From positions 68,190,205 through 68,254,204 of the forward strand of contig JAVHZZ010000002.1 in the NCBI GenBank assembly GCA_036250195.1: a stretch of DNA of 64,000 nucleotides. The letters are read 5' to 3'. Below are positions 20,998 to 64,000 of this stretch, one piece after another; the stretch's first letter is position 1, and each line of letters opens with the position of its first letter. This DNA comes from Mixophyes australis (lineage: Eukaryota > Chordata > Amphibia > Anura > Limnodynastidae). Under the pieces are notes generated by a model, which had not been told where the DNA came from, did no database searches, and saw only the letters and a program-made list of their open reading frames with translations. The position numbers and the translations under genes were made by a program.

Positions 20998-21002
20998 CTA
21001 GG

Positions 21003-22274: not shown

Positions 22275-22275
22275 A

Positions 22276-28987: not shown

Positions 28988-29003
28988 TAGTTTATTACAC
29001 TAT

Positions 29004-40062: not shown

Positions 40063-40291
40063 AGTCTGAAGAGGATTAACTGTAGGGGGCAAACACTAAT
40101 TTTACCGTCTGTAGCACCTCTGTGGCCTCATCCCCACATACAAATAAATTTATGTGGTTGAAGAGGAATGGAAGGAATGGATAATGGTTGACTCATCATA
40201 GTTTTTCTCCATACAGAACAGCATCCACATGAACTATATACTATTAAAGTCATTTTATCGCTTACCAATATAACATTGTCCAATGCGATTG
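40063..40291. other. Unassigned spacer left of duplication copy A
   Basis: No gene or repeat is recognised. It ends where similarity with 59488 and beyond begins. Confidence 0.4.
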
Positions 40292-41341
40292 TTGTGGTTC
40301 CAAAGCACTAAGATATTTAATTGCAAAATATAGCAGGATTACAGCAAGCCATTTTTACACATTAAAGATGTTACAAAAAAGCAATAAAAGATATTATAAT
40401 CAAACAGGAAACTATAAACATAAATCAAATACATTACATGTTAAGTACTGCTTCACCCGGGCCCATGATAAGATAGGGTCATGTTGTCTGTAGTCAGGCT
40501 AAGAGATCTAGCTGGGGGAGCAGCTTGCTTATATGCAGTTTCAGTATAGAAAAAAACACTGATGATGTCACTATGTATACAGATAACACTTAGTGAGGTC
40601 TTCATTGGTTCAGGGTTAATGATATTCCAGTTGTCTGCTGGTCAAAGGTCAGTTCATTTGATCCTTTCAAAGGGTGAGGGGCAACTTCCCCCAACTGTTG
40701 ACTATGTGTCTTCCTTCTGAATACCCAGTTCAAACTGACCCACACAAAGTACTTTTGAGTATTAATCTCATATTGATTATATCTTGCGACCGCTAGATGC
40801 GATCGCTACCCTGTTCAAACCAGGTTAATGCTGGTGAAATAAGCTTTAATATGAGGCCAAACTCTTTACCTTTTACAAGACCTGAACCATTATTACCTTT
40901 ACTATAGTATTATCTATGCATAAATAAACAATCTAATACATTTTACTAATAAATAAATGTGGATTGCAACCTTAATAAATGTGTATTATTTACAAGTGTA
41001 AGTGCAAATTTAAATGTGTGTGTTATGAATCCGTGCGATTGCGTTATAACACATGGCGTATTAATCACAATCGCACGGTAAAACAATATTAATCCATTTG
41101 GCTTACTTCATCCAATTATTTGATTTCCACAATACTATATAGTATGCTATAACTAGCTGGCATTGCCCGGGTTTAAATGTTCAAGTTATTAAGTTGACAA
41201 TGAGATGAATGTAACTGTCAACATTTTAAAAATAATTAGAAGCTAAGATGTCACCCCAATCCATCCAGTGGAAGGCCCAAAACTTCCTCCCAGGGTCAAA
41301 GTTCTGTCCTGTGTACAACAATGGGAGGTTGGTGTACACAA

Positions 41342-41548
41342 TGCGATGATGTCACAAATGGGGAAGAAAAAAGAAAAAGAGAAAAACATATGTGTAGCAC
41401 GTAGGATGAGGGAGCACCTTATCTATTAGAGGGCCCCATATACCAAACAAGGTACAACTAATCTTATAGATCTTACATGAGCATATCTATGTGCTACACA
41501 TATGTTTTTCTATTTTTCTTTTTTCTACCCCATTTTTGACATCATCGC
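41342..41548. mobile_element. Foldback MITE-like hairpin
   Basis: Arms of about 60 bp (GCGATGATGTCACAAATGGG ... ACATATGTGTAGCAC and its complement) are separated by about 85 bp. The same structure is at about 60524-60735 in copy B. A tight CCGTGCGATTG/CAATCGCACGG hairpin lies nearby at 41031-41078. Confidence 0.7.
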
Positions 41549-42219
41549 TTTGGAGCTCGTTATAAACAACAAGTAAGTCAGCTTATGAACTTTTATGCAG
41601 TGTAAGAATATTCATTCTACTCTGGTCAATTCTATAAACATTGACAATAATCAAGTCATTGTTGAAGGACTCTTTGATATTAAGAACTTATATGGTTTTA
41701 TATGATTGAATTTCTAAGTATATTGAAACTTAATGACTATATTAGTTGTGTAAGGTTTGTGCCTTGGTTGTACTCCATATACTGTTCATTAACTATGAGC
41801 TTAGTTTACATACACAGCAGAGGAGAATGACCATTGGAGTTGATAAAATGTAGTCAGCAGTGAGAAGACAACTATGATTTAATGTGTTTCACAACGAATT
41901 ATTACTTGTGCTCTAAGTGCACTAATGTTTTATCAAGTGAATTTGGTTGAATTAGTTTTTTATACTGTATATTACATGGGCCATTTGGGGTTCTGTATAA
42001 TATGTAAACACCTTTTAATTATGATACAACATTGAATATTTGCATTCATAATATTAGAAATATTTATATTGTTCTGTGTTTTGAATGTTATGTGAAAAGT
42101 GACTTGAACTACTTGAAAGAGACAGAAAGGAGCCCTGACCTGATTGTTGGATTAGGCCTTGATGATTTATTTTGTTCTTTGCTGTGATCCTCTGCCAATG
42201 TAATTCAAAACTGTAATTG

Positions 42220-42278
42220 GCCATTTCACTAGCAGGGAAGTGGCTCCACGGCAGCTACTTCCCTGCTAGTGAAATGGC
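42220..42278. repeat. Short near-perfect hairpin
   Basis: The arms (GCCATTTCACTAGCAGGGAA and complement) are 25 bp with one mismatch and a 9-base loop. It is preserved in copy B at about 61413-61471. Too short for a coding role, and its function is unknown. Confidence 0.8.
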
Positions 42279-42465
42279 GTAGTTGGGACATCTATGTTAT
42301 GGAGGAAGAGGGAGCACGGCTTTAGCCCCCCCATCAGGCAGACTTAGCAGGTCTTCTTGGGCCTTAAGGGGTGTTTATTTTTATTTTTATCTGAGAAGTT
42401 CACAGTGTTTGGATTTCAGTACATGGTTTTAATGGCCTGGTCTCTATAATGTAAAAGAAGACGTG

Positions 42466-42957
42466 CCTCTGTTTCTCTCTTCCATTCTCATCACATCCTC
42501 CCATTCCTGCTTACAGGACTTTTTTTGGGCTGCACCCACTTGATGGAATTTCCTCCCTCACACAGTAAGACTTTCCTTTAGTCTCAAAACCTTCAAGCGT
42601 TCTCTGAAAACCCACCTCTTCAGGCATGCTTATGATATTCCACAACCACCATCTTAATCTCCCTAGGTTACCCTATTACCACCCTCTACACAGCTAACAC
42701 AAGACAACAACCCTCTGACCAAAATTGCTGTGAGACTGATAACACAGCCCACTCAATACTTTTATCTTCGCTTTCTAGCTGGTCCAGTGTGCAATATGAT
42801 GTAGCACGTGCCCTTGTGTTTCAAACTCCCATTGTCCCATAGATTGTAAGCTTGCGAGCAGGGTTCTCTGTCTTCCCCTTCCCTTCCCTTGCTTTTTTTC
42901 TGTACTCCCAGAAAATATCTTATAAAACTCAATAAACTTATTTCCAGTTAAAAAAAA
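42466..42957 (+). mobile_element. L2/CR1-like LINE 3' end
   Basis: The sequence is homologous to 37567-37676 (TCATCACATCCTCCCATT, GGGCTGCACCCACTT) and continues through the missing C-terminus (LKTHLFRHAYD) and a 3'UTR with ATTGTAAGCTTGCGAGCAGG. It is a 5'-truncated insertion. Copy B holds it at about 61659-62150. Confidence 0.75.
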
Positions 42958-43060
42958 ACTGTATTGTCCATGACAATATTTCATAGTTTTATGCCATTAG
43001 AAAATATCTAAAATTATACCATGGTAAAAATAGCACAATGCACTTGAGATCCATATGCAG

Positions 43061-43066
43061 TTTATT
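43061..43066 (-). terminator. Keratin A poly(A) signal
   Basis: TTTATT on the plus strand is AATAAA on the minus strand, about 600 bases past the keratin stop. It implies a 3'UTR of about 600 nt. The same signal lies at 62254-62259 in copy B. Confidence 0.6.
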
Positions 43067-43662
43067 TAAGATATATAGAAAAGACAAGAAAGGCGAGCTT
43101 ATAGATCAAACATCCAGTAATGCATTAAACAGGATTTTATATACAACAAACACCCAGATCCCTGACTCCCATTACTCTCAGGAACAAAAATAAGCAAGAA
43201 CTTAGGACTGGTAAAAGCCAAACTCAAACAAACTCACCTAGATATGTTACAGGGATACACAAGTGCAATTACATTCATACAAAGGGAATATAAAAGATAT
43301 AACGCCCTCTCTAAAAAATATCTTTTGATCTTCTGTTTGACAGTTGCAGTAGTGGTAGGTTGCTTTCCCCATTTTCAAAAAATATCTGAGACTATATTTA
43401 GGGTTATTTATGGTTATACTGTAGACTCTATGGAACAAGTGTGGCCGAGACACTTAATGAATAGAAATTCTTTGGGTCAATGTTACGGTAAAACACGGAA
43501 TGTCTACATTATAGTCAATTGTATCCTTGAGAAAAAGCAAGGAGAGAGCCAGGATGATACAACTGAACATACTAGTGAAGCTGTTATTTGAGCAGATTAA
43601 CAAAGGTATAGGGGAATTTTGGCTTTTAAGGGTGGTGAATAGTGCTCTAACTCTGGCACATC

Positions 43663-45893
43663 TTAATAGGTTTTCTTCATTGAGGATGATGATGTTTTTG
43701 ACACCGCCACTGTGGATCTGCTGTAACTGCCGCTTCCCTGAGAGGCACCATATTGGCCGCTGCTGCTGCCTCCTCCATATCCTCCTCCAGAGCCATATCC
43801 ACTTCCGCCACCTGCACCATATCCACTTCCGCCACCTGCGCCATATCCACTTCCGCCACCTGCGCCATATCCACTTCCTCCACCTGCGCCATATCCACTT
43901 CCTCCACCTGCGCCATATCCACCTCCTCCACCAGCACCGAATCCACTTCCAGCTCCGTATCCTCCTCCACCACCAGCAGAGACACTGGAGCCTCCGCCAA
44001 CTACGGCTAGAATAAAAAATAAGATGTTTTGGTTTTTTCATACATGAGATTTAGACAGCAATGAAAGTTCATCAGTCACAGAACTGGTGTATACTTACAG
44101 ATGGTTACATTGTTGACTACTTCTCCAGACATTCTGCAATCACAAAAATTGATGTTGTTACAAATAAAAATACTAAAAATGTTGTACTTTTATTTTGTTT
44201 GCAAGTGGCTTAATTTATGCTTTATATTTCAATATTAATGAGCAAAAGAGATTTTTTTGTACTAGTTCAGTTGTGGGTAGATTGGCATTTTTTACACACT
44301 GTTATATATATGTGTGTCATATTATACAATACTGTCTATGAAGAAAGTTGCCAAGAAAACCTTGGTGTGCTGGATCTGGTCCTTGGTCAAACAATTAAGC
44401 ATAAAGCTAGATGTTATTCCAAGTCTTTATTTATATAAGCTAAATATTCTGGTTTGTGCACACAATATCATTTTATAATAATACTGTCATAGATCACACT
44501 GAACTAACCTTTCCTCCTCTCCTACCAGTATGGTACTGTAAGTGGCTATTTCAATATCAAGTGCAAGTTTCAAATTCATAAGTTCCTGGTAGTCACGCAA
44601 TTGACGGGCCAGATCTTCTTTGGCCTTTTTCAAAGCAGCTTCAAGTTCAGCCAGCTTCTGTTTGGCATCCTTCAAAGCAAGTTCCCCACGCTCCTCAGCC
44701 TCCTTAACGGAAGACTCTAAACCTGTAATCTGTATGTTTAAAATATTTAATGTTAGTATTTTATTCTCAATTATCAAATCATTTTTCTTTCTAAAGCCCC
44801 ACTTCTTAATTCCCCAGTCTCAAAACGTTTGCACCCACAAAATATTTCTATCAGAAACCTTATATTATAAGTTCTCAACCTCCATAGTAAATCAATACAC
44901 TTCAATTAGGGCTACCTGCTTCTTGATGTTTTCAATCTCACTCTTCAGTCTCTGGATCATACGTTTCAGTTCTGAGATTTCAGTCTTGGTGTCCTTCAGG
45001 CTGTCTCCCTGTTGTCCAGCAGCAGCCTGCAACTGCTTGAACTAATAACCAGAAAGCAAAAGCCTACATTAGTAATTAAAAACTAAAATTTAGATCACAT
45101 ATATATTTAAGGTCTTAATATAATAAATGACTCAATATGCATTTAACCCTTGATTTATTACAGTATGCTAAGATTTTATGATAAAATCATCTGTAGTTTC
45201 AGTTCTAGAATACTGGCCATTTAAAGTACACTTCACATACCATCATGAAACCACAAGAAAGAATTTTTAAAATTAAAAGCAACATTAAATTGTAAATATA
45301 TTTTTGAAGTTAATGATGATTTAATGTATATGCAATAATATATAATTAATAAAAATATGAAATAGATGTGAGCTTCTTTAAGTAGTTCTGTAAGGCTGTA
45401 TGTAAATATTTATAATTATATGTGCGCAATGAAATATTTAATGACATATTGTGTAAGTTTCAACTTGTATTGGCAATATATCTAAGTGGACTATAGGGTG
45501 TGGTCTAATTACATGTGCTGATTAGGGTTTCATATTACACACATTATCAAGTTGATTGCACTCACTTTGTTGTCATATAATGCTTCTGCTTCAGCTTTGC
45601 TTCTTGCTGCAATCTGGTCATATTGATTCTTAATATCCTTGATTATGTCATTCAAGTTCAGGTCTCTGTTATTATTCATAGACAGAACAACTGAGGTATC
45701 ACCCATGCCACCCTGAGCCTGTGAGAGTTCCTGCAAAACACACAAAGCATCATTCATGAGCTTGGACTCACCATTAAAGTTACCAGATGATTTCTCACTA
45801 ACTACTGCACCCCAAAACCAAGTGGTCTCATGTAGCATGTTTCATAACGGTAAAGTAAGGGGAAACTAAAAAAGTAACTCTATCGCCCTCTGG

Positions 45894-45958
<65 letters not shown>

Positions 45959-48331
45959 TATATATATTGCTGTATGCTTCTTTAAATATAACGTAACTCG
46001 ATGAACCATACCCCAGTCCGTGGTAAAGATTTAAATTACCCATACTTATTCATAGACATTAGCAGCAGTTGTAGTTCCTTTAAAGCAGGTCTGTCCAACC
46101 TGCGGCCCTCCAGGTGTTGTGAAACTACAAGCCCCAGCATGCTTTGCCAGTAGACAACCGGTTGATAGCTGGAAGGGCATGCTGGAACTTGTAGTTTCAC
46201 AACACCTGGAGGGCCGCAGGTTGGACAGGCCTGCTTTAAAGTGTAGTGAAAAAAAATGCTTACTTAATAACTATTCCCCTGACTCGGACCATTACGACAT
46301 ACTGCAGCCCATCTCCCTGACAAGCAGTAATCATTACCTTACCTGAGCAGCTCATATTACCTGACCAGCTCATTGTCCCTCCTTATATGTAAATCAGAAG
46401 GACAATACCAGGCATACCCAAAATATTCCTTTTAAAGCAACCTCAAAAGGGTTGGCTTTAACATAGTAGGATACAGAGACAAGAACAATAACAGTTTGTG
46501 CCACATAAAAGCCCTTGGTGGGCTGCATTTTAGGCAACCTTAATCTTTACAGTACCACATGCTTCGCATGTTCAGCAGAAAAAGTGCCCCTGAGATGTCC
46601 CAGAGTAGGTCATAAGGATAACACTTGCGTGACATACTGCATACTGAAGTTGTACAGTATAAATAGATATAAAATACACACATTTTGATGGAAGGGAAAA
46701 GACAAATTATACCCCTGAGGAGAGCTTGTGCTTGCCCCAGCTGAGCTAATCACATTTACGATAGAAATTTATATGTTTAGAAACAAAAGAAGAAATCTTA
46801 CTGCATCATAGAGCGTTCTCAAGAAGTTTATCATATCTGTCAGTCCCTGCACCTTGGTTTCCAAGTCCACCTTGATCATGTATGCAGCATCTACATCCTG
46901 TAGCAGATCAATAGTCATTTCATTAATTTAGAATACATTTTAAATCTTCACATAGCTTATAATTTCAGCTGGTTTCTTTAAAGAAGGAACAAATACTTTT
47001 TTTTCAAACTGTAAAAGAAACAGGATTTATTTCACTAATCAAACATAACTTACCTTCTTAAGCACCACAAATTCATTTTCTGCTGCTGTGCGCTTATTAA
47101 TTTCATCTTCATATCTGCAGAAAAATGTTTTGAAATTCTTTTTCGTTAAGTGATTTTATATGGCATACATTGAGTTGAACAAAAATATCATTGTAAAGAA
47201 TATGTAAAACAAGGTTTGAGGCAGAAAACTTTCTAATAAGGAATATGTTAAAAGCATAATGCAAACATACTTTTTCTTGTAGTCTTCTACCAATTCTTGC
47301 ATGTTCTTTAGTTCACTCTCCAGACGGCTTCTCTCGCTTATTATACTGTCATGTTGTCTCTTCAGATTACTTATAAAAGCCTCAAAAAGAGGGTCTAAGC
47401 TGGGTTTTTTGGAGCCACCTTTTTGTCCTTGTTCTTGTAAAAGGTGCCATTTTGTCTCTAGTACTTGATTTTGCTGTTCCAGGAATCTAACCTATAAATA
47501 GAAAGGGAGGCATTTTAACTCTCAATGACGTCTCAAAAACGTTCAGTATACAGTGCAACAAAATTTCAGTTTAAGCATTGTCTGAGCCAAACAAAAGCTT
47601 AGACTTATATATTTTCTGTAGCAAACGTTAGCCCTCTAGCTTAAAATATAAAAAACTTAAAAAATTACATAATGTGACAGTATTAATGTTATATTATTCA
47701 TTGTTATATTTCTTACCTTATCAATGAAGCTAGCAAATTTGTTGTTCAGGGCTTTGATCTGTTCTCTTTCTTCAGTTTTTACTTTTTGAATGGCTGGATC
47801 TATTTCCACATTTAGTGGTTGCAAAAGGCTTTGGTTGATGGTGACCTGCTGGATTCCACCAGGTGGGCAAACAGGGAAGCCAAGGTCACCTCCAGGTCCA
47901 CCACCATATCCTCCAGCACCTCCACCATATCCTCCTGCTCCTCCACCGAACCCTCCAGCTCCTCCACCGAATCCTCCTGCACCTCCACCATATCCTCCAG
48001 CTCCTCCACCGAATCCTCCTGCACCTCCGCCGTATCCTCCTGCACCTCCACCGTATCCTCCTGCACCTCCACCGTATCCTCCTGCACCTCCGCTGTATCC
48101 TCCTGCACCTCCACCATGTCCTCCTGCACCCCCACCGAATCCTCCACCACCAGCACCATAGCTGCTTGTACTAATTGAAATTCTTTTACTTCCACCAAGG
48201 CTAATTAGACTTCGTGATCCAAAGCCACCTCCAGCACGAGAGCCACCACTTGATTTTCCTCCGCCAACTGAGCAAACACTAAAGCCCCTGCTTCCACCAC
48301 CACCACCAATACTCTGCTTTGGCCTTTGCAT
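43663..48331 (-). CDS. Type II keratin, complete nine-exon gene
   Basis: Exons on the minus strand are 48331-47717, 47491-47271, 47114-47054, 46897-46802, 45730-45566, 45041-44916, 44729-44509, 44133-44099 and 44006-43663. The lengths of 615, 221, 61, 96, 165, 126, 221, 35 and 344 match the conserved type II pattern in exons 2-8. The total is 1884 bases, 627 residues plus stop, with all junctions GT-AG and in frame. The Gly-rich head holds GGAGGY repeats. The rod opens [18 protein letters not shown] and closes [16 protein letters not shown]. The tail has GAGGGSGY repeats and ends [12 protein letters not shown]. Family knowledge: type II keratins pair with type I to form epithelial intermediate filaments in the cytoplasm, and Gly-rich ends are typical of epidermal types. 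The orthologue is not assigned. A second copy starts to the right. Confidence 0.95.
45896..45965. repeat. (TA)n microsatellite in keratin intron 4
   Basis: A TA run of about 65-70 bases with one interruption lies inside the intron between exons 5 and 4, and is likely length-variable. Confidence 0.95.
46078..46243. mobile_element. Foldback MITE, family F1 copy 2, in keratin intron 4
   Basis: Arms of about 55 bp (CTTTAAAGCAGGTCTGTCCA..., AACCTGCGGCCCTCCAGG, GTTGTGAAACTACAAGCCCC) enclose a loop of about 50 bp. The family also has a copy at 1727-1868. The arm core reads ACTACAAGCCCCAGCATGCT. Confidence 0.85.
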
Positions 48332-48424
48332 AATGGCTTTTTGCAGAATGAAGCTGAAAGGGAACAAAAGGAACAGATAAGATGAAGGAGAGTGGGCCCC
48401 TTTGCACTGAATGACAAAAGCCTC

Positions 48425-48434
48425 CCTTTTTATC
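48425..48434 (-). promoter_or_regulatory. Keratin A TATA box
   Basis: GATAAAAAGG on the minus strand lies about 95-105 bases upstream of ATG 48331, a fitting distance for a keratin promoter with a short 5'UTR. Confidence 0.65.
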
Positions 48435-48639
48435 TGTTTGAAGAGTTGGGCTTGGTTGCAAGGGTGGCAGGATAACAGTTTAATGCAATAGTGGGTTTGG
48501 CAAAGCTGGCAGCCACCCATCAATCCTCTAAACTGATCACACCTATGGGAAATATTGCTTTGCTTGCACTGATTAATTCCACTAATCTGTCTCAATGTGC
48601 CTAGTTGTGACAAAGTTAATACATCAAAAATCATTGTAT

Positions 48640-50150
48640 ATACAATGTGTCCTATTTTATTTCTATGTGCTATATTAAAAAAAGCCTTTAGGCTTTTATT
48701 TCCATTTTCACACGATCATTAGAACACATTAACATTTGCTGTGTGATTTTAACATATGCATGAACTTAATTATTAAAAAAAAATCTGCACATACTTGCTC
48801 ATGAGATTATTGTTTGTTGACTGCAGATTGCTGTAAACTGTCTATGTAAAAACTGACATAAATATATTTTTTACCTTAGAAAAAATGATTTATTTGTTAC
48901 TTACATGTGTTTTCGTGTACCGGAGTAAGCCGATCCTATCAGTACACAATACTAGACAAAATCTATTTGTATACAAAAATGCAATTAACACGAGTGAACA
49001 GTTCAGTCTTTATGGGGGTGATGTCACTCAAAATATTACCATTGTTTGAACTGTACCTTCATACAAAGAAAATGCTTCTTTACAATTATTATAAAACAGT
49101 ATTCATTGATGAGAACAACAAACTTTAAGAAAACATGACTCATCTGTTCAGAACCAGGAATTCATTGAAACATGGAATTCTCCAGCAGAAAGGAATTGTG
49201 GGAGAAGCCATACCAAGGAGCACATTTCTACTTTGTTGCAGTCTAAGAAAAACAAAAGTTATAGAAACAAAATTTGATGATGGATTACCACTAAATGGGG
49301 CTCTGAGCAGATCAGCAGATTTCAAATTCACACCTCCGGTCTCCTTCATTCCTCCTACACACCATACTAGGAATGCCCCTCATAATAAGTGCCCGATTAT
49401 ATACAAGTCAGTCAAAGGTGGCCACATGATTTTATTCCAGCCAGAACTATCCATATGATTATACAGTAGTCAGAAGTGTTCTTATCATTAAATACCAGTC
49501 ACAGGTGCATAAGACGTGCCTTCCTTATCTGTACTTCTGGTCTGCATTGACAGATTGGTCACTTTGGAATGGGAATCACTCTGGTTGGTGTAAGCTTGTT
49601 TACTGAACACACCTGAGGTGTAAAGGATAGTAGGATCATTTTAGAAAACAATAAAGCTGATAGTCAGACCTCCAATATTTGCTGAGCCCCAGGCTCCTGC
49701 CTAGGTTGCATGTCAGGTATTCCAACACTGCATCTGCTAAATGTCTGTTAAAAGTAATTACTACTCATTCAGTAATATATATATTTGCAATGTTATACTG
49801 TAGTTGGCAGATAAAGCAGGTTGGAATGAAAAGGCAGAACAATGAAAGATAAACACCTTTTCATTAAGATAAAAATCTAAAACTTGCATTTTGACTGTAT
49901 GTTAATTTTTATGTCAATTCCAGTCCCACGTGGCGCGGAATCTGCATCACTGTGTTTTGTATCGATGTATATTGCACCTGTCTGGCTGCAGACCATTACA
50001 CTTGTGTAAAGCACGTGTGTTATTACCCTTTGCGTCTATGTATTCATATTTACTCTTTATACACTTATACCTTTATAACCTATTACATTTATATTAACCT
50101 TTATTAACCTATAATTGTGAATTAATCAGAAGGGAGTTAACTATAGGTAA
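48640..50150. other. Keratin upstream intergenic region
   Basis: AT-rich. An ORF at 49135-49458 has no recognisable domain. No repeats or RNA genes were noticed. Confidence 0.4.
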
Positions 50151-50416
50151 AGCTCTGCCCCTTTATGCTAATGTCTTCGGTATCTCGTACATTTCCCCGC
50201 AAATGTCGCTGCAGTGTGTACGGAATTTAAATCATTGTTCACGACAACATGGCTGTAAAAAGTCGCTAACGGGACGTCCGCTCATCCCTTTCTCGTCCTA
50301 AACAAGGCTAGTGTGTATGCAGTCCATGGACCGAGCGATCAGACCATCGATCGCATGTAAAACTGCTCGGCATAAAAAGTTGGTCGAAATTTCTGTAGTG
50401 TGTACCCAGCTTTGGA
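50151..50416. mobile_element. Possible DNA-transposon fragment
   Basis: It starts TAAAGCTCTGCCCC and ends TGTGTACCCAGCTTT, a weak inverted pair, with internal CpG-rich palindromes (GATCAGACCATCGATC). The assignment is tentative. Confidence 0.3.
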
Positions 50417-50810
50417 AATTATATAGAGAACAAGTGCCAAGCGACACAACCAATGTCTAGTTTGGCCATGTGGGTGGCCAAATTGGTCAAGAGCCAGCCA
50501 TTCAGCGGTTCCAAACCACATGGATGCCTGTTAGTGCATTTGGAAAATGACCACATGCACAAGCAGATCTACCACCTGGATTTACAGTTATACCCGATAG
50601 TCATCCAGTTATTAATTTTGGATTGTGATGTGGCTAGTTTTGAGAGAGTGTTATGTGGATTTTTGGGGACATTTTTGCTATAGCACCCACTGCCCCTTCA
50701 AACACACATGGACACGTATCTATAGAGCTAAATTGTACCAACCTCCACAATGTTCCTTCTTTAATAAAGGAAAATGTATTTACCTCTTAATTTTAACAAA
50801 TCAGTACACC

Positions 50811-51008
50811 TGGGGGTAAATGTATCAAGCTGCGAGTTTGCAACTCCAGCGATTTTCTCAGGAGAGTTGAAACTCGCCGATGTATGAAGCTGAGATTTCA
50901 TGCAAAATCGCCAGAGTTCTGCTTCTGTCAAAATCGCTACTTGCTACCCGCGATTTGCTGCGATTTAAACACGCTGGCAAACTCGCAGTTTGATACATCT
51001 ACCCCCTG
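50811..51008. mobile_element. MITE with about 29-bp terminal inverted repeats
   Basis: The ends GGGGGTAAATGTATCAAGCT and its near complement AGTTTGATACATCTACCCCC are joined to GCGAGTTTGC/GCAAACTCGC. The interior holds several GCGATTT motifs. There is no ORF. The target duplication is unclear. Confidence 0.8.
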
Positions 51009-51261
51009 GTCTTTTATTAACTGCAGACAAATCCACAGATCTGCCTAAATCACTCTTATGTCCTTGAAGACCATGTCATTTTCCAACATGATACACCTGT
51101 TCCAGCTGCCATAAAACATGACTTTTGTCAAGTATGCTATAAATAATTAAAAATAAAAGTAAAAACAAGATAATGAATTATAAATTATCTATGGAAACTT
51201 AATAAAACAAAAGTAAAAAATGTGATAACATAATGAAGCATTGGACAACAGGCTGAAGGCC

Positions 51262-51366
51262 ATAGTTCATTAAGGAACTTAAATTAAGAAACTTCTTATT
51301 TAAGTCTCCTGGACAAAACCATGTTACAATGCAAGGGGTGACAATTAGTTTTCTGTTTTGCCATAA
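51262..51366. mobile_element. MITE fragment, GGGCCTGATTCATTA family
   Basis: Matches the left 100 bp of the MITE at 37676 (TTCATTAAGGAACTTAAATT, CTCCTGGACAAAACCATGTT). The hairpin half is missing. Confidence 0.65.
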
Positions 51367-52134: not shown

Positions 52135-52588
52135 AGCCAGCCAGCGCCGGTGCTAGGGTCCTTGGCGCACTAGGCACAGTTTACAAATCGCCCCCCCCCC
52201 CTTTAAAAATCGCCCCCCCCCTCTTTAAAAATCGCCGCTCCCTCCCTTTAAAAATCGCCGCTGCGCTTCCCTCCCCACCCCTCCCCATGTCTATCTTTAA
52301 CTTACCTGCATGAAGCTGCTCCTCTCTGCTCTGTCTTCTCCCCTCCACTCACAGACACTGTCGGGCCGTGATGATGACATCATCACAGCCTGTCACTGTC
52401 AGTGAGCGGAGGGGAGAAGACAGAGCAGAGAGGAGCAGCTTCATGCAGGTAAGATTCAATAGCCCCTTCCCTCCTCTCCTCCCCGTGGATTTCACTTTTT
52501 TTTTTATTTCGAGGCGCCCTGCAGAGCCCGGCGCCCTAGGCAATTGCCTAACCTTGCCTAATGGGAGCGCCAGGCCTGCAGCCAGCCA
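52135..52588. mobile_element. Palindromic MITE with perfect inner hairpin
   Basis: An imperfect outer pair (CCAGCGCCGGTGCTAGGG ... GGGAGCGCCAGGC) encloses an inner hairpin of about 46-bp arms (about 52303-52350 and 52408-52454, with GCATGAAGCTGCTCCTCTCT and complement). A repeated AAAAATCGCC block lies at 52187-52260. No ORF of its own. Confidence 0.75.
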
Positions 52589-52986
52589 TGACATACAGAA
52601 TCAGGCTGTTTCCACTAAACAGACAAATTGCCTGGGAAATGCTGGGAATAATGTAAACTATTACTATACTAGTAGAAGTTACTCTTTGGTTAGCTGCTTC
52701 AGGTTGTTTCAGTCTGCTGCCTTGAATTGGGATGTCTCGCCAAAATCGGGACAGTTGGTAGGTATGAATAAGATGCACAGGGGACATTTTTGTTTGGAAG
52801 GGAATAGTTCACAGAGTACAACCACTCACTCATGTCTGGGGCCTTGGAGAGGGGCCACATTCTAGTGATACACATTCATAGTACAGAGTTTCACAGAGAC
52901 AGGCAGGTGTTTGTGTGAACGTGTTGAGCACCATAATGAAAACTGGTTTCTAAACTATATATATATATATTTTGATAGAAACACTG

Positions 52987-55074
52987 TGTCACGGGCACTA
53001 GGAGTCTTTACCCAGGGATCACCGGGTGGTAGGCATACCAGAGCAATGTAGATGGTAATAGGGTACTCTGGTAGCTGGGTGATCACGGAACAGGAAATGG
53101 TAACTGATGAGATGCTCAGGAAAGTCTATGACTAGCAGCACTGGTAATGTGGAGGTAATAATACACGAGGAACTGTATGGACAAGGGCACGTGAAGGTAG
53201 TCAGTGGTCTGCGATAGCAAGTTGTACCACTGCTATAGTGAGGAGGAATGTCCAACAGAGACAAGGAGGTGATGAGAGTCAGCGGTCTGCGGATAGCAAG
53301 TTGTACCGCTGTCTGAGTGAAGGAATGGAATCCAAGTGGAGGTATCCGGGTAGTCAGTGGTCTGCGGTAGCAAGTTGTACCACTGCTATGTGAAAGGATA
53401 CTGGAACAGGTGATACAGGAAACAGGGATCAGTGGTCTGTCATGAGCAAGTTGTACCACTGAATATATATGTGAGGAGCTGCACGGGGAGGGACTGCAAC
53501 ACAGGATATACACAGGCACCTTATACACGATCCACAGTAATATGCACAATATATATATATAAATGACTGAGCAGGTCTGCAAATCTAGAAAGTCACTTGA
53601 AGTAGTCCAGCACAAGATAACACAGTCAATGATGGCAAAAGACTCAGCGGATAGCAGACTCCAGAGAGAACCAAACACAGTCCAGCAAGATATGCAATAC
53701 ACCAGCACAGTCAATGAGAAGTATGCATACCGTGGTTCAGAAGCAGGCAGTCAGATAGGAGTGCAGCGATACCTGAGCGGCCGGAGGCCGACTGGATGAG
53801 AAGTCCCTGGATGGATGAGGCAGCGGACTAGTAGGTGCAGCGCACAGGTAAGTAAACCAACAGGGACACGAATCCACAGGAATCAATAACACGTGGAACT
53901 GGACTCAAAGAGGACCCAGGAGAATGGAGATGATCCAGCAGAGGAGTAGTTGTTGAGATACGAATCCAACGCTGACAGGAGGGTAGAGACCAGCGGAACA
54001 CGTGAAGGCGTGGAGAGCGGATCAGCAGGAGATGGACGATAGCGCTGACAGCAGCAGCAGCAGGACTCTGCGCCCACGGAGGTAACCAGGGGCAACCAAC
54101 AGGACCCACGGTGATGGAAAACAGGATGGCAGAGTAGACCAGGAGCTGTAGATCCAGAAGTGTAGCGGATGGCAACGTGAGCAGTAGACTGGGAACACAG
54201 GAGAGCTGAGATGAGGCGGCAATGCACAGGGGCAGCGGATAGGAATCAGCTAACAGTCACGATGATGAACACAGGCGAGTTGCAAGCTGGAGACTGTAGT
54301 GCACGGAGGCAGCGGATAGGAATCAGCTAACAGTCACGATGATGAACACAGGCGAGTTGCAAGCTGGAGACTGTAGTGCACGGAGGCAGCGGATAGGAAT
54401 CAGCTAACAGTCACGATGATGAACACAGGCGAGTTGCAAGCTGGAGACTGTAGTGCACGGAGGCAGCAGATAGGAATCAGCTCAGGAACTTGATGATGAT
54501 CAGGTGAGTGGATGTGAAGTGAAGGCTGGAGTGCACGGAGGCAGCAGATAGGAATCAGCAAACAGCCACAATGATAATAATAGCGTTGAAGTGATTTAGA
54601 AGACTGTAGTGCACGGAGGCAGCGGATAGGAATCAGCAAACAGTCACAACGATGTATAATAGCGGTGAAGTGGTTTTAGAAGACTGTAGTGCACGGAGGC
54701 AGCGGATAGGAATCAGCAAACAGTCACGATGATACAGTTGATGGTAGAAGTGGTATGGGAACCACAGTAGTAGAAGTGGTTTGGAAACCACAGAGATAGA
54801 AGTGGTTTGGAAACCACAGGAATCAGCAGCGCTGAATACACGAGGAATACAGGAACGCCTTCAGAGACTCATGGGGAATGAGACTCCAAGATCAGGCAAC
54901 GTGGTGTTGACCACAGGTGCTTAATATAGGGAGTGTTGCCTGATCTGCCAATTGAGTTAAAGGGACATACACTGAAGTATAGGAAAGGGCTGCGCATGCG
55001 CAGACCCTCAGGATGGCGGACGGCCACGGTTCCTAAATGTCCGAGAAGAGGCACTCACGGTCCGGTGAGTGACA
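52987..55074 (-). mobile_element. Solo LTR of the chromovirus family
   Basis: On the minus strand it runs TGTCACTCACCGG...GTGCCCGTGACA like the LTRs at 15378 and 19220. A 5-bp target duplication CACTG flanks it (52982-52986 and 55075-55079). Length is 2088 bp, longer than either other LTR because its minisatellite (54232-54735) has seven units of 77-80 bp. The four hairpin modules are at 53202-53232, 53280-53311, 53355-53385 and 53430-53461. The interior was lost by LTR recombination. The long ORF at 53019-53714 is a chance frame through it. Confidence 0.92.
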
Positions 55075-55194
55075 CACTGGGGAAGTGGTTAATGGCAGGT
55101 ATATATTATGATATGGTAATTGGTATATCTGCGCAGGTCAACTGAAGGCAGCCCTCTGTACACACACACACAATCCACATATAATGTGCAACAA

Positions 55195-56060
55195 ATAATT
55201 TAAACAATAACTAATGGTGACAGAGCTGGCGCTCACAGTTCTCAAAAGTTAGTCTTATAGTACTGTGTATATCTTCTTTCAAATTAGACGTATATCCTCC
55301 AAAGGTTCCAATAATTGGTGGTAGTGCAAATAAATTTCAGATCTCTGATATTCCCTCTCCACGAATATGATGTAATATATGATTTCATAATAGACTAGAT
55401 GTCCCAGGGATCTGGTGAAAGTAGATAATTAAAATACACACACCACGTGATGAAGGTTATCGATCCCCTATGGGGTGCACACTTACAAGATTTCAATCTT
55501 GAACCACACAGATCAATATATGGACATAGATGTCCTCCTCCAATTATGTCTTCTTACCGGATCCTCTCAAATCGATACTCAAAAAGAGAAGTAAAAGGAC
55601 TAATAGTACATTATCTCCCATAAAAGATATTTTATTGCACCAAAGTAAACATAAAAACAATGTATAAAAAAACTTCCAACATATCCAGATCGTACAGAGA
55701 CACCAGTGAAGCTGGACTCTTACCGAATCTCAGATGGAACAGCGCATGTAAGGAGAACGTTAATCCCATCCACACGGTCGGGTAGCCGGCTCACTCCTTG
55801 CAAGTAGTAGAGATCCAGAATCAGTACAGATTAACCAGCGTGTCCGTGCGTCCGGACATCCGCTCCTTTCCTGCCGACGCGTTTCAATTTATCAAAATCT
55901 TTATCAAGGCATAAGGGCAGACATGAACATAAGGGCATATAAAGTCCCTTCATCCAATAGAAACCCATGGAATTAACATACAGTATCCATAGTAACCAGA
56001 GCTTCATATAACTAAACACATTTTCGACCAACATAATATCAAAGTAATTAACCTAAGGGG
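55195..56060 (-). mobile_element. Penelope-like 3' region, second type
   Basis: No ORF. GACGCGTTTC at 55876 is followed by AAAATCTTTATCAAGGC, the module seen at 7398 and 58552. The start resembles the others (GGCGCTCACAGTTCTC). The assignment rests on this shared module. Confidence 0.45.
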
Positions 56061-57720
56061 TTATGTCCTATCACATTAACCCCCTAAAACGTGTGTCTTT
56101 CTAAAGTCCGAGATAAAACTTAACAAAAATCGGACTACAACTCACACAGCAGGTTTCAAAAAATGGAACACAAATATTTGTGACTTCCATATCTTCTTAA
56201 TAAAGTGCATCAGTGTAATCATACGTGAACATAGATTCAGTTTCTGTACAAGAAAAATAGTCCAAATAACGGACTTCACATACTGTAACATCTTATCAGT
56301 GAATGCAGGGTATAAATATAGCCTACCCTAGTGTCAAAAACACCATATGTAGCTCCTATCAAAAATTTACATATAAAATATATAAACATATAACATACAG
56401 TGATCACAACATTTAATATCGTGAAATGTGTTAAAAAATAAGCCCTATTTCCAGAGGGGTAAGCACTAGACTGTAAAAATATAAAAATCATGTAAAAAAA
56501 TATATAAAATAATAGATCCATCCTGACTATATTTGGACTATAAGGATAGCCATAAGTATATCAACGGTTATGAAGAATATCCCTGTTTAGCATCACCTAC
56601 TGGTAACAGCGCACATAACCTCCTAACATCCATGATCATAATATTGTTCCCATGAGATATATAATTACAACCTCACGGTACCATATACAACAAAAAAATT
56701 CAAGTGTAATCAAAGGACTGAACATATAACAGGAAGATGAGGATGTAACAGATATACATATATTGTGCACCAGTACTTTGAACACCAAGTTATTGCTTGT
56801 GTCAAATGCTAATATTTATAGGTATAAAACATATAATGTCCATAATGACATATCCATATCGAAAAACTTATTATGAAAAAACTCTTAATTGAAGGGATGC
56901 AGACTTCACATAAAATAAAAAAATCATATATAAGAATAATACTCCTATGTGTATTACTCTGGAACATGTACCATGCCTTATCCAATATATATACATCCAA
57001 CATAATGGCAGGTATATATGTTTTAGGTTTCTGTCCTATGTGTTTTAAAACCCGAAGGAGATTGATTGTGCTTCGGGAAAGAGCTACCCAAATATCGGTC
57101 CAGCTTCAGTAAGGGTTATGAATGTTAAAAGAAGGGTGGGATACATTCAGGCTCATTCCAAGTCTTCCAACCTGCTAGCCAGTTGCTGGCTAAATTTAGA
57201 GTTGCATCTGGGAGGTGTAGTTAAAAGGGTGTGAGATTTATGATTATGTTTTGTTTCTTTTTTACGCTGCTAAATGAAACTAGCTGCGACTACTTGTACC
57301 AAGGCATTGGACTGGTGTGCTATTACAAGTCTGATGTATGGGAGGTGCTGCTGTTTACCCCAGGAAAACGGCAATGCTAACCTAATCTTGCGACACATGG
57401 TGGAGAATGCAAACATTGCACTTCAAATGCAGCCATAAAAGAAAAACTATGTGAAAAATATTAAGTGACAGACACCCATTTTTTGAAGAGACTGTTATAT
57501 AGAAAAATCCTATGAACCCTAATGCGGGTCATCGTCAGCTGATTAAGGAAGCTACATTCTGCCCTTCCTCTGCAATAAGAGGTAATATGGAGGACATAAT
57601 TAAGGCCTTGCAACAGGCTACCCTACACAACAGGAAGCTACCTGGGTGCAGCATTTAGCCATTGAGTAGGCCTGGAGGCAACAGCAATCAGATGTTGAGG
57701 AAATCTGGAGTTAACAGCAA
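56061..57720. other. AT-rich, no gene
   Basis: Short AT-rich repeats (ATATAACATA-like) are present, with no supported ORF. It may extend the PLE-like block to about 57000. Confidence 0.35.
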
Positions 57721-57902
57721 TCATCATCATCGTCATCATCATCATCATCATCAGCTATTTATATATCGCCACTAATTCCGCAGCACTGTACAGAGAACTC
57801 ACACACATTAGTCTCTGCCCCATTGGAGCTCACAGTGTAAATTCCCTAACATTCACACACACAGACAGAGAGAAAGAGAGACTAGGGTCAATTTGATAGC
57901 AT
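57721..57902 (-). mobile_element. Non-LTR element 3' tail, family T copy 3, with (ATC)n
   Basis: Begins with a run of about ten ATC/GTC triplets, then TATATCGCCACTAATTCCGC and the family sequence up to TTGATAGCA, where the PLE 3' end abuts it. Confidence 0.75.
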
Positions 57903-59000
57903 ATATAATATAGGTGAATTGTAAATATGGCGCTTCACTCGGTGTGCAGCCTAGTATGTATCAGCAAAGTACCACTAACACTTCACAATCGGTATGAAAG
58001 AAATAAAGATAATACATACATATGGCGCTGCCTTCACGCACACTACTGGGTAGTCGTAGATAGACACGTATAATCAATGCCCTTTAAAAAATCTGGAATG
58101 CAAGGTTATACATACAGAGAAAAAAATGATAGTGTGGTATGTTTAACATTAAACATAAAGAGACACATGTGTAAATCTCCAGAACAGAATCCTGTGCATG
58201 GATATCTAAAGATGGCACCCCTGTATTCACTCATATAAAACCCCTCTCGGCTATATGCTTACTGGAACGAAGCTGTAATCACGCTCTTAAATGGAAAATT
58301 ACAAGGTTCCCACTCAGCACCAACTCCTCACAGCTGATGTTCCATGCTCAAAGAAAAGAAAGCAGATTCTAGCGCATTAACCTTTTAATAGACAATAAGG
58401 GTGAACACATACAAATGGCCCCGTACCGGGAACAGATTGTAAACTCAAATTCAATAAGGTAAGTATTGAACCACCAGAGTCCTCTCACCACAGGAAATCT
58501 CGTACATCATTCCTGCTCTTTATGGTCCCGTTGTCATCCAGATTAAAACCAACGCGTTTCGACTCGTATAAAAAGTCTTTCTCAAGGTTTGAAAATCAAG
58601 TTCCATATCATCATTTTTATACTCCTCTTTTACTGCTTGACACCTGTTTCTGATTCAAAATTTCCAAAACGAGGCTTGGATACATCATGTACGACAGAGT
58701 TCCTGTTTCTTTTTTCTCGCAAAATGGTAAAATCAGCTATATTGTATCATAGAATTAATCCAAAAACACATCTCTATCTAATACATAGACCATCTATGCA
58801 AAACACAGTATTGCCATGTATTTTCCTCCTCCAGATGAAATTAATTGATAGGTTACTGATCCTCGGAATACGGAAAAAATAGGGACAAGAAATATGAAAT
58901 TACTTGAGATCTAATTGAAAAGTAAATAAGGGCAAAAATAAATCATACATTCTAAAAGGATGAATATGTTTTATAAAGACGTGTATAAAAATACATAAAA

Positions 59001-59309
59001 CTATAAAAACCACTTTAATTCAAAATCAGCGTTGAGACCTTTTGGGATCAACTTATCTATACTAAAAATCCATCTCATCTCAGAAGTGGATAGAGTAGTA
59101 AGAGTATCCTTATTTTTCCAACTCTCTTCAATTTTCTGAAGTCCCCAGAAACCTACCACATGTTCATCTGAACAAGAATGGTAACACTTAAAATGCTGAG
59201 AGAGTGTGTGTGTCTTCAGACCCCTTCTTATATTATAAAAGTGTTCTCGCAATCTCACTTTCAATGGACGAGAGGTTCTCCCTATATACACTTTCTCACA
59301 ATTGCATTA
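59001..59309 (-). pseudogene. PLE GIY-YIG endonuclease domain
   Basis: About 100 residues start NCEKVYIGRTSRPLKVRLRE, the GIY-YIG core in which the usual GIY/VYVG pair is VYIG and the helix Arg and Glu/His positions follow. Later come HFKCYHSCSDEH and a final KGLNADFELKWFL end. Family knowledge: this domain nicks target DNA for Penelope reverse transcription. It is intact in itself but has lost its RT, and the coding continuity is broken by the inversion at 59307. Confidence 0.88.
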
Positions 59310-59483
59310 GAACTAAAGGTTTTCATAGGTGCGCACAGTGTGTAGCATGTAGAACATGCAAAATGGCTCGAAATAAAACAACTATACTGATACTTAATGG
59401 TAAAGAGGTCAAGATAGACCAATTTATCACATGTCATTCTAAGAATGTTGTGTATGCCATTAAATGCAGTTGTGAGAAAGTGT
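59307..59483 (+). pseudogene. PLE region upstream of endonuclease, inverted
   Basis: The plus strand encodes a Cys-rich linker (FHRCAQCVACRTC, then FITCHSKNVVYAIKCSCEKV), which is the segment that normally precedes the GIY-YIG core. It is the inverted 5' part of the same PLE insertion. Its last 19 bases repeat those of the 3' part. Confidence 0.85.
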
Positions 59484-59487
59484 CGTA

Positions 59488-62400
59488 TTGTGGTTCCAAA
59501 GCACAAAGATATTTAATTGCAAACTATGGCAGGATTTACAGCAAGCCATTATTATGCATTAAAGATGTTACAGTAAAGCAATAAAAGATATTATAATCAA
59601 ACAGGAAAATATAAACATAAACCGAATACGTTACATGTTAAGTACTGCTTCACCCGGGCCCATGATAAGATAGGATCATGTTGTCTGTAGTCAGGCTAAG
59701 AGATCTAGCTGGGGGAGCAGCTTGCTTATATGCAGTTTCAGTATGGAAAAAAAAAAACAATGATGATGTCACTATGTATACAGATAACACTTAGTGATTG
59801 GTCCAGACTTAATGATATTCCAGTTGCCTGCTGGTCATAGGTCAGTTCATTTGATGATCCTTTCGAAGGGTGAGGGGCAACTTCCCCCAACTGTTGTCTA
59901 CGTGTCTTCTCTCTGAATATCCAGTTCAAACTGACCCACACAAAAAGTACTTTTGAGTATTAATCTCATATTGCTTATATCTTGCGACCGCTAGATGCAA
60001 ACGCTACTCTGTTCAAACCGGGTTAATGCTGGTCAAATAAGCTTTAATATGAGACCAAACTCTTTACCTTTTACAAGACCTGAACCATTATTACCTTTAC
60101 TATAGTATTATCTATGCATAAATAAACAATCTAATAAATTTTACTAATAAATAAATGTGGATTGGAACCTTAATAAATGTGTATTATTTCCAAGTGTAAG
60201 TGCGAATTTAAATGTGTGTGTTATGAATCCGTGCGATTGCGTATTAATCACAATCGCACGGTAAAACAATATTAATCCATTTGGCTTACTTCATCCAATT
60301 ATTTGATTTCCACAATACTATATAGTATGCTATAACTAGCTGGCATTGCCCGGGTTTAAATGTTCAAGTTATTGAGTTGTCAATGAGTTGGATGTAACTG
60401 TCAACATTTTAAAAATAATTAGAAGCTAAGATGTCACCCCAATCCATCCAGTGGAAGGCCCAGAACTGGCTCCCAGGGTCAAAGTTCTGTCCTGTGTACA
60501 ACAATGGGAGGTTGGTGTACACAATGCGATGATGTCACAAATGGGGAAGAAAAAAGAAAAAGAGAAAAACATATGTGTAGCACGTAGGATGAGGGAGCAC
60601 CTTATCTATTAGAGGCCCCATATACCAAACAAGGTACAACTAATCTTATAGATCTTACATGAGCATATCTATGTGCTACACATATGTTTTTCTATTTTTC
60701 TTTTTTCTACCCCATTTTTGACATCATCGCTTTGGAGCTCGTTATAAACAACAAGTAAGTCAGCTTATGAACTTTTATGCAGTGTAAGAATATTCATTCT
60801 ACTCTGGTCAATTCTATAAACATTGACAATAATCAAGTCATTGTTGAAGGACTCTTTGATATTAAGAACTTATATGGTTTTATATGATTGAATTTCTAAG
60901 TATATTGAAACTTAATGACTATATTAGTTGTGTAAGGTTTGTGCCTTGGTTGTACTCCATATACTGTTCATTAACTATGAGCTTAGTTTACATACACAGC
61001 AGAGGAGAATGACCATTGGAGTTGATAAAATGTAGTCAGCAGTGAGAAGACAGCTATGATTTAATGTGTTTCACAACAAATTATTACTTGTGCTCTAAGT
61101 GCACTAATGTTTTATCAAGTGAATTTGGTTGAATTCGTTTTTTATACTGTATATTACATGGGCCATTTGGGGTTCTGTATAAAAAGTAAACACATTTTAA
61201 TTATGATTCAACATTGAATATTTGCATTCATAATATTAGAAATATCTAAATTGTTCTGTGTTTTGAATGTTATGTGAAAAGTGACTTGAACTACTTGAAA
61301 GAGACAGAAAGGAGCCCTGACCTGATTGTTGGATTAGGCCTTGATGATTTCTTTTGTTCTCTGCTGTGATCCTCTGCCAATGTAATTCAAAACTGTAATT
61401 GGCCATTTCACTAGCAGGGAAGTGGCTCCACGGCAGCTACTTCCCTGCTAGTGAAATGGCGTAGTTGGCAGATCTATGTTACGGAGAGAGAGGGAGCACG
61501 GCTTCGCCCCCCCCCCCCCCCCCCCATCAGGCAGACTTAGCAGGTCTTCTTGGGCCTTAAGGGGTGTTTATTTTTATTTTTATCTGAGAAGTTGACAGTG
61601 TTTGGATTTCAGTACATGGTTTTAATTGCCTGGTCTCTATAATGTAAAAGAAGACGTGCCTCTGTTTCTCTCTTCCATTCTCATCACATCCTCCCATTCC
61701 TGCTTACAGGACTTTTTTTGGGCTGCACCCACTTGATGGAATTTCCTCCCTCACACAGTAAGACTTTCCTTTAGTCTCAAAACCTTCAAGCGTTCTCTGA
61801 AAACCCACCTCTTCAGGCATGCTTATGATATTCCACAACCACCATCTTAATCTCCCTAGGTTACCCTATTACCACCCTCTACACAGCTAACACAAGACAA
61901 CAACCCTCTGACCAAAATTGCTGTGAGACTGATAACACAGCCCACTCAATACTTTTATCTTCGCTTTCTAGCTGGTCCAGTGTGCAATATGATGTAGCAC
62001 GTGCCCTTGTGTTTCAAACTCCCATTGTCCCATAGATTGTAAGCTTGCGAGCAGGGTTCTCTGTCTTCCCCTTCCCTTCCCTTGCTTTTTTTCTGTACTC
62101 CCAGAAAATATCTTATAAAACTCAATAAACTTATTTCCAGTTAAAAAAAAACTGTATTGTCCATGACAATATTTCATAGTTTTATGCCATTAGAAAATAT
62201 CTAAAATTATACCATGGTAAAAATAGCACAATGCACTTGAGATCCATATGCAGTTTATTTAAGATATATAGAAAAGACAAGAAAGGCGAGCTTATAGATC
62301 AAACATCCAGTAATGCATTAAACAGGATTTTATATACAACAAACACCCAGATCCCTGACTCCCATTACTCTCAGGAACAAAAATAAGCAAGAACTTAGGA

Positions 62401-64000
62401 CTGGTAAAAGCCAAACTCAAACAAACTCACCTAGATATGTTACAGGGATACACAAGTGCAATTACATTCATACAAAGGGAATATAAAAGATATAACGCCC
62501 TCTCTAAAAAATATCTTTTGATCTTCTGTTTGACAGTTGCAGTAGTGGTAGGTTGCTTTCCCCATTTTCAAAAAATATCTGAGACTATATTTATGTTTAT
62601 TTATGGTTATACTGTAGACTCTATGGAACAAGTGTGGCCGAGACACTTAATGAATAGAAATTCTTTGGGTCAATGTTACGGTAAAACATGGAATGTCTAC
62701 ATTATAGTCAATTGTATCCTTGAGAAAAAGCAAGGAGAGAGCCAGGATGATACAACTGAACATACTAGTGAAGCTGTTATTTGAGCAGATTAACAAAGGT
62801 ATAGGGGAATTTTGGCTTTTAAGGGTGGTGAATAGTGCTCTAACTCTGGCACATCTTAATAGGTTTTCTTCATTGAGGATGATGATGTTTTTGACACCGC
62901 CACTGTGGATCTGCTGTAACTGCCGCTTCCCTGAGAGGCACCATATTGGCCGCTGCTGCTGCCTCCTCCATATCCTCCTCCAGAGCCATATCCACTTCCG
63001 CCACCTGCACCATATCCACTTCCGCCACCTGCGCCATATCCACTTCCGCCACCTGCGCCATATCCACTTCCTCCACCTGCGCCATATCCACTTCCTCCAC
63101 CTGCGCCATATCCACCTCCTCCACCAGCACCGAATCCACTTCCAGCTCCGTATCCTCCTCCACCACCAGCAGAGACACTGGAGCCTCCGCCAACTACGGC
63201 TAGAATAAAAAATTAGATGTTTTGGTTTTTTCATACATGAGATTTAGACAGCAATGAAAGTTCATCAGTCACAGAACTGGTGTATACTTACAGATGGTTA
63301 CATTGTTGACTACTTCTCCAGACATTCTGCAATCACAAAAATTGATGTTGTTACAAATAAAAATACTGAAAATGTTGTACTTTTATTTTGTTTGCAAGTG
63401 GCTTAATTTATGCTTTATATTTCAATATTAATGAGCAAAAGAGATTTTTTTGTACTAGTTCAGTTGTGGGTAGATTGGCATTTTTTACACACTGTTATAT
63501 ATATGTGTGTCATATTATACAATACTGTCTATGAAGAAAGTTGCCAAGAAAACCTTGGTGTGCTGGATCTGGTCCTTGGTCAAACAATTAAGCATAAAGC
63601 TAGATGTTATTCCAAGTCTTTATTTGTATAAGCTAAATATTCTGGTTTGTGCACACAATATCATTTTATAATAATACTGTCATAGATCACACTGAACTAA
63701 CCTTTCCTCCTCTCCTACCAGTATGGTACTGTAAGTGGCTATTTCAATATCAAGTGCAAGTTTCAAATTCATAAGTTCCTGGTAGTCACGCAATTGACGG
63801 GCCAGATCTTCTTTGGCCTTTTTCAAAGCAGCTTCAAGTTCAGCCAGCTTCTGTTTGGCATCCTTCAAAGCAAGTTCCCCACGCTCCTCAGCCTCCTTAA
63901 CGGAAGACTCTAAAACTGTAATCTGTATGTTTAAAATATTTAATGTTAGTATTTTATTCTCAATTATCAAATCATTTTTCTTTCTAAAGCCCCCCTTAAT
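59488..64000. repeat. Segmental duplication, copy B (to window end)
   Basis: Copy of 40292-44816. Differences noticed include a 15-bp deletion near 60240, an expanded C run at about 61507-61525, and scattered substitutions. Copy B continues past the window edge. Confidence 0.95.
62856..63922 (-). CDS. Second type II keratin gene, 3' exons only (partial)
   Basis: Exon 9 is at 63199-62856, exon 8 at 63326-63292 and exon 7 at 63922-63702. All are at the expected offset from the complete gene, with the same GT-AG sites and the same stop. The tail repeats look identical. Exon 7 has one noticed coding change, Gly to Val near its start (ACC to AAC on the plus strand). Exons 1-6 lie beyond 64000. 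The open frames and high identity suggest a recent functional tandem paralogue. Confidence 0.93.

What the first reader, a model, noticed from the sequence alone, without database searches (positions are those of the whole stretch)
59285..59500. Twin-primed PLE sits exactly on the boundary of the keratin tandem duplication
The PLE has its 5' part inverted, with a 19-bp overlap at the inversion point (59288-59306 on the minus strand, 59465-59483 on the plus strand). Its outer end is followed within about four bases (59488) by the start of copy B, equivalent to 40292. In copy A the sequence left of 40292 is unrelated to PLE and to the sequence left of the PLE. So one of the two breakpoints of a 19.2-kb gene duplication coincides with a retroelement insertion junction. 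This suggests that the PLE end, or its repair, was used in the duplication. Twin priming is well documented for L1. For Penelope-like elements it would be noteworthy.
Basis: partly seen in the sequence, partly recalled or inferred. Interest (0 to 1): 0.8.

Follow-up and report, generated by a model that had tools for sequence, protein, structure and literature searches.

The report
Retroelement beside, not at, duplication junction
A jumping gene with a flipped end does sit next to a duplicated keratin gene, but the shared sequence that seemed to mark the edge of the duplication is a common repeat, so the two events are probably unrelated.

Summary
The anatomy is real. A 5'-truncated Penelope-like element (PLE; about 57927-59306, minus) carries an inverted 177-bp 5' arm (59307-59483, plus) overlapping the body by 19-21 bp, as in twin priming; an uninverted relative (L023) confirms it.

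The link to the duplication does not hold. A's 40242-41131 is an intact copy of a high-copy 0.9-kb repeat. B's match begins inside another copy (59486-60314, first ~48 bp missing) that abuts the PLE. Over its first ~570 bp, A and B differ by 6.06%, as much as from copies on other contigs; the best genome match to B's part is on C10, not A. A/B-specific identity begins only at A 40.81-41.01 kb, 0.5-0.7 kb right of the PLE (permutation p 0.0002). So the junction probably lies inside the repeat and the PLE is a bystander. Against this: two substitutions shared only by A and B.

The duplicate is about 10 kb, not 19.2 kb; B ends at 69457 without a PLE. Inverted arms occur in 5 of 9 other PLE loci examined, and a PLE protein extends both target strands (PMC11167929).

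The parts
57927..59306 (-). 3' part (body) of a 5'-truncated Penelope-like element, endonuclease domain at 59306-59004; 3' end placed near 57927
   Evidence: Pfam GIY-YIG; collinear with L023; homology to L029 and L026 stops at 57927 / 57928
59307..59483 (+). inverted 5' arm of the same element, coding for the Cys-rich linker
   Evidence: tblastn 59315-59482; L023 1501-1682
59288..59306 (-). 19-bp overlap, body side
59465..59483 (+). 19-bp overlap, inverted-arm side; outer end of the PLE
59484..59485 (.). about two unassigned bases between PLE and repeat
59486..60314 (+). copy of the high-copy 0.9-kb repeat at B's left edge, lacking its first ~48 bp; probably a hybrid (left part from another repeat copy, right part as in A)
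40242..41131 (+). intact copy of the same repeat at A's left edge, flanked by ATAC on both sides
60008..60208 (+). interval in which A/B-specific identity begins (inferred left junction of the duplicate; A 40810-41010)
40810..51264 (.). copy A of the duplicated segment, with a type II keratin gene on the minus strand
   Evidence: Pfam Keratin_2_head and Filament
60008..64000 (.). copy B inside the window; it continues to 69457 on the extended contig
57735..57901 (-). 5'-truncated SINE-like repeat just left of the PLE

Best explanation
Two events lie side by side. (1) A Penelope-like element inserted by target-primed reverse transcription; the second target strand primed inside the same RNA near the linker/endonuclease border, giving an inverted 177-bp 5' arm. 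The insertion took away at least the first ~48 bp of a neighbouring copy of a high-copy 0.9-kb repeat and left no detectable target-site duplication. (2) A ~10-kb keratin segment was duplicated with its left junction inside that repeat, where it pairs with the repeat at 40242-41131: either by unequal recombination between the two repeats followed by loss of the right part of B, or by a break in the repeat repaired by copying from the upstream repeat and closed at 69457 by end joining. The PLE is a bystander 0.5-0.7 kb from the junction; the A/B alignment starts at the PLE only because the PLE cuts off the repeat there. Shown: the anatomy, the repeat, and the loss of A/B-specific relationship left of about 40.81-41.01 kb. 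Inferred: priming details, order of events, repair pathway.
For: Repeat at the start of B: genome search with 40092-41091 gave 42 matches from 40 scored of 5113 first-look candidates, 34 of the 42 starting at query 141-153. Left part: A-B 6.06%, A-L033 5.63%, B-L033 6.22%; A and B together in 16% of 200 bootstrap trees; right part A-B 1.56%, next nearest 4.69%. Pair-private shared sites: left A-B 2, with 11 of 351 pairs at 2 or more; right A-B 5, next highest 2; change of pattern p 0.0002 (1 of 5000 shuffles). Fisher test left against right 0.0006. B's left part matches C10 (837 bits) better than A (830 bits). Left-part divergence 33/561 against 3.8% in the duplicate, P 0.010; 0 of 7626 same-size windows reach it. 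B's end is not at a PLE. PLE flanks share only a 5-nt word, the commonest value in 500 random pairs.
Against: Two substitutions (40448, 40815) are shared by A and B and absent from 25 other copies. A old duplicate whose left part escaped gene conversion would also look divergent; 250-bp windows elsewhere in the duplicate reach 6%. The repeat copies compared were chosen as A's best matches. No second repeat follows B within the 84 kb held, so simple unequal crossing-over needs a later deletion.
Confidence: 0.8

Rival explanations
1. PLE-bridged duplication: the PLE's second strand was primed on, or joined to, a free end inside the repeat at 40292 of the sister chromatid, so that one event made both the inverted arm and the duplicate.
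For: PLE end and repeat are 2-4 nt apart; no target-site duplication; two substitutions shared only by A and B left of the proposed junction; retroelement-bridged duplications exist for L1 in cancer (PMC7058536, passages).
Against: Left ~570 bp of B is not closer to A than to copies on other contigs; B ends at A 51264, not at the PLE target.
Confidence: 0.07
2. PLE insertion with a target deletion that erased an original duplication junction further left in B.
For: No target-site duplication, and the repeat's first ~48 bp are missing.
Against: Does not explain why A/B-specific identity stops inside the repeat.
Confidence: 0.08
3. Assembly join at the PLE/repeat border.
For: The border lies between two repeated sequences.
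Against: No N in the window plus 20 kb, inside a contig of 421,896,032 bases; reads were not available.
Confidence: 0.03

Closest known systems
Endonuclease-containing Penelope-like elements with inverted 5' repeats (PMC3846280; parts 1-4 of 5 read)
   Same: GIY-YIG endonuclease; inverted 5' piece; short overlap at the inversion (15 bp there, 19-21 bp here); truncated and rearranged copies
   Different: There the inverted piece is a pLTR; [quoted passage not shown]
Two-strand cleavage and extension by the Anolis PLE protein PAc (PMC11167929; passages seen)
   Same: Gives a direct biochemical route to inverted PLE ends
   Different: In vitro; internal priming there is within a stem-loop of the template, here inferred near the linker/endonuclease border
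L1 twin priming (recalled, no call)
   Same: Inverted 5' part, short overlap at the inversion
   Different: Different class of retroelement
L1-bridged tandem duplication in tumours (PMC7058536; passages seen)
   Different: Element must lie at the junction; here the junction lies 0.5-0.7 kb away
Repair-mediated duplication by capture of nearby DNA (PMC2671141; abstract and outline seen)
   Same: Closely linked, same-chromosome copy inserted at a break
   Different: The 824 human cases there are up to 619 bp; here about 10 kb, with repeat homology at one end

Membership tests
Penelope-like element | GIY-YIG endonuclease domain | tested here: met
   PF01541, 26.4 bits against cut-off 22.6, E 8.4e-6
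Penelope-like element | PLE reverse transcriptase upstream of the endonuclease | tested here: inconclusive
   Truncated in the window copy; open frames upstream exist in relatives such as L028 but were not scanned against a family library; the RT reading there is recalled from motif
Penelope-like element (Neptune-like) | Cys-rich stretch between RT and endonuclease (as stated in PMC3846280) | tested here: met
   Linker translation; no tree was made, so the clade is not established
Target-primed insertion of a PLE | Target-site duplication | tested here: not met
   Longest word shared by the flanks is 5 nt; relatives have one (L026 16 bp, L029 15-18 bp)
Twin priming | Inverted 5' segment plus direct 3' segment from one template with a short overlap or gap | tested here: met
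Twin priming | Pairing of the second primer with the RNA at its start | tested here: inconclusive
   Only 2-4 unassigned bases; the pre-insertion target is unknown
Retroelement-bridged duplication | Element end at the duplication junction | tested here: not met
Duplication by unequal recombination between repeats | Switch between repeat copies inside the junction repeat | tested here: met
Duplication by unequal recombination between repeats | Second unit as long as the repeat spacing and followed by the second repeat | tested here: not met
   B stops at 69457; no copy of the repeat found from there to 84000; a later deletion could explain this

The most novel reading that the evidence does not exclude
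A PLE cDNA, primed on both strands, used a free end inside a repeat 19 kb upstream as its second primer and so fused retrotransposition with duplication of a keratin gene; the repeat's left part then diverged or was overwritten by another copy, so that its sister relation to copy A is no longer visible. It would be a germline PLE-bridged gene duplication.
Probability: 0.07. Interest if true: 0.75.

Novelty: new member of a known kind. Interest (0 to 1): 0.22.

Why it matters
It is a worked example of how a high-copy repeat can make a transposon junction look like a duplication breakpoint: the alignment of two copies starts where the repeat is cut, not where the duplication starts. The PLE itself is a clean, twin-priming-like insertion with a 19-21-bp overlap, in a genome where the other inverted PLEs examined have long overlapping arms; that fits the report that a PLE protein cleaves and extends both target strands (PMC11167929). 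The patchy divergence of the two keratin copies is a modest side result.

Tried and rejected
Rejected: 57901, where a SINE-like repeat stops, as a PLE target inside that repeat; its missing part was found neither beside the PLE nor at 69458, so ordinary 5' truncation is simpler. Rejected: A 52141-52579 / B 69715-70168 as part of the duplicate; it is the same MITE-like element inserted separately with different flanking repeats. Rejected: remains of the repeat's first 50 bp left of the PLE (best local alignment score 23; no shuffled control was run). Nothing found: Rfam at gathering level in the window, only weak hits with E 0.69 or more at the PLE; PDB for the two PLE pieces (two thymidine kinase hits with E 0.7 and 0.84; none); protein search for the endonuclease piece. 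Paper search for 'Penelope-like' with 'twin priming': 3 papers, listing only. Paper searches: listings; only the papers named in this report were opened further. PMC8969392 and PMC5718144: passages. Not done because unanswered: genome searches with 55200-57700, with the right flank of B (L030:5440-6940), and for a diagnostic 19-mer.

Full report
Where it lies. The window is G000:C2:68190205-68254204 of a 3.126-Gb genome in 680 contigs. I fetched the next 20 kb (L030, L031) and keep counting coordinates to 84000; no N occurs.

The PLE. Minus-strand 59306-59004 encodes a GIY-YIG endonuclease (PF01541, E 8.4e-6; tblastn). Plus-strand 59315-59482 encodes the Cys-rich stretch that belongs upstream of it. 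In the closest relative (L023, C5) both lie in one open frame in the normal order. Window 59301-59483 corresponds to L023 1501-1682, and window 59306->58336 to L023 1664->2613. So the 5' arm is inverted and about 19 bp are used twice; the repeat finder gives 21 nt at 95%. The 3' end lies near 57927, where homology to L029 and L026 stops. The two flanks share no target-site duplication: longest common word 5 nt, the commonest value (213 of 500) among random pairs. Two relatives have one: L026 16 bp, L029 15-18 bp (read from the sequences).

How usual is an inverted end. I examined nine other PLE loci: L023-L029, the seven best non-self hits; L013, met among 20 stretches sampled from C1, a distant relative (endonuclease 35% identical); and L056, chosen because two opposite hits lay close, hence biased. 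Inverted arms were found in five: L025 (pieces of 56-142 bp, 92-97%), L026 (949 bp, 98.5%), L029 (804 bp, 99.0%), L013 (1200 bp, 97.7%) and L056 (1384 bp, 97.9%). No such arms were seen in L023, L024, L027 and L028, of which only 3.2 kb each is held, so their 5' ends may lie outside. Without L056 it is four of eight. The window copy differs by overlapping only 19-21 bp, as single-template twin priming would give. Inverted 5' pLTRs, one overlapping by 15 bp, are described for rotifer PLEs, where self-priming is proposed (PMC3846280; parts 1-4 of 5 read). A lizard PLE protein cleaves and extends both target strands (PMC11167929; passages).

The duplication. A 40292 aligns with B 59488. In the extended contig homology ends at A 51264 / B 69457. 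A further match, A 52141-52579 / B 69715-70168, is the same MITE-like element inserted separately with different flanking repeats. So the copy is about 10 kb; 8.2 kb right of A's copy (51265-59487) has no counterpart after B, and B carries no PLE at its end within the 84 kb held. The duplicate holds a type II keratin gene (Keratin_2_head and Filament). A/B divergence is patchy: 250-bp windows from 0 to 6%, plus one of 18% in a poorly aligned stretch. A two-state fit gives 0.38% and 3.8% (170 of 4477 bases in the higher state), with 43700-44010, 45780-46300 and 47860-48180 left out. This suggests gene conversion.

The start of B is a repeat. A genome search with 40092-41091 gave 42 matches from 40 scored of 5113 first-look candidates; 34 of the 42 begin at query 141-153, that is at about 40242. 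The repeat spans 40242-41131 in A, with ATAC on both sides. A match of 4 bp or more, allowing 0-2 bases of slack, was found in 8 of 22 copies with both ends recognised, A included; several right flanks were short, so this is weak support. In B it spans 59486-60314 and lacks its first ~48 bp, exactly where the PLE abuts. Similarity at 59488 could therefore be family similarity between two repeat copies.

Test. I aligned A, B and 23 other copies, later 25. In the left part (A 40292-40860) A-B distance is 6.06%, A-L033 5.63%, A-L034 6.01%, B-L033 6.22%; A is B's nearest of those aligned, by a hair, and B is A's third nearest. A and B form one side of a branch in 16% of 200 bootstrap trees. In the right part A-B is 1.56% and the next nearest 4.69%. 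Pair-private shared sites: left 2 for A-B, with 11 of 351 pairs at 2 or more and B-L036 also 2; right 5 for A-B, next highest pair 2. The change of pattern has permutation p 0.0002 (1 of 5000), best position 41006-41010, with lesser support at 40810-40815 and 40856-40891; Fisher test left against right 0.0006, with the split chosen after seeing the data. A genome search with B's left part ranks a copy on C10 (837 bits) above A (830 bits), both 91%. Left-part divergence, 33 of 561, exceeds the 3.8% of the duplicate (P 0.010), and 0 of 7626 same-size windows reach it, the highest being 31.

Against this reading: two substitutions (40448, 40815) are shared by A and B and absent from 25 other copies; the copies were chosen as A's best matches; an old duplicate spared by gene conversion in its left part would look similar.

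Reading. The left junction of the duplicate lies most likely inside the repeat, at A 40.81-41.01 kb / B about 60.01-60.21 kb, 0.5-0.7 kb right of the PLE. Either the two repeats recombined and B later lost its right part, or a break in the repeat beside the PLE was repaired by copying about 10 kb from the upstream repeat and closed by end joining at 69457. I cannot separate these. The PLE bridge predicts A/B sister sequence up to the PLE and a duplicate that runs to the PLE target; the first is not seen beyond two sites, the second is not seen. L1-bridged duplications are known (PMC7058536, passages), so the idea was reasonable.

Limits. The genome search answered 3 of 40 requests, so the count of the diagnostic states in all repeat copies and two other searches were not done. 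No related species or allele was available.

Noticed in passing
40292-51264 against 59488-69457: The two keratin copies are a mosaic of nearly identical (0.38%) and diverged (3.8%) stretches, which suggests gene conversion between them.
   Followed up: partly
52141-52579 and 69715-70168: The same MITE-like element inserted independently a few hundred bases after the end of homology in both A and B, with different flanking repeats.
   Followed up: partly
14365-29854: Provirus-like element: end repeats 14365-15202 / 29017-29854 at 99.0%, pol-like and env-like frames by Pfam. A second LTR-type element (repeats 15378-16993 / 19220-20997) lies between them. Described only.
   Followed up: no
52986-55075: Looks like a solo LTR, minus strand, of the family seen at 15378-20998.
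   Followed up: no
L026, L029, L056, L013, L025: Penelope-like elements with long head-to-head inverted arms; two have target-site duplications of 15-18 bp.
   Followed up: partly
78392-78677 (extended contig): Tandem array with a 36-bp period near LTR-element fragments.
   Followed up: no
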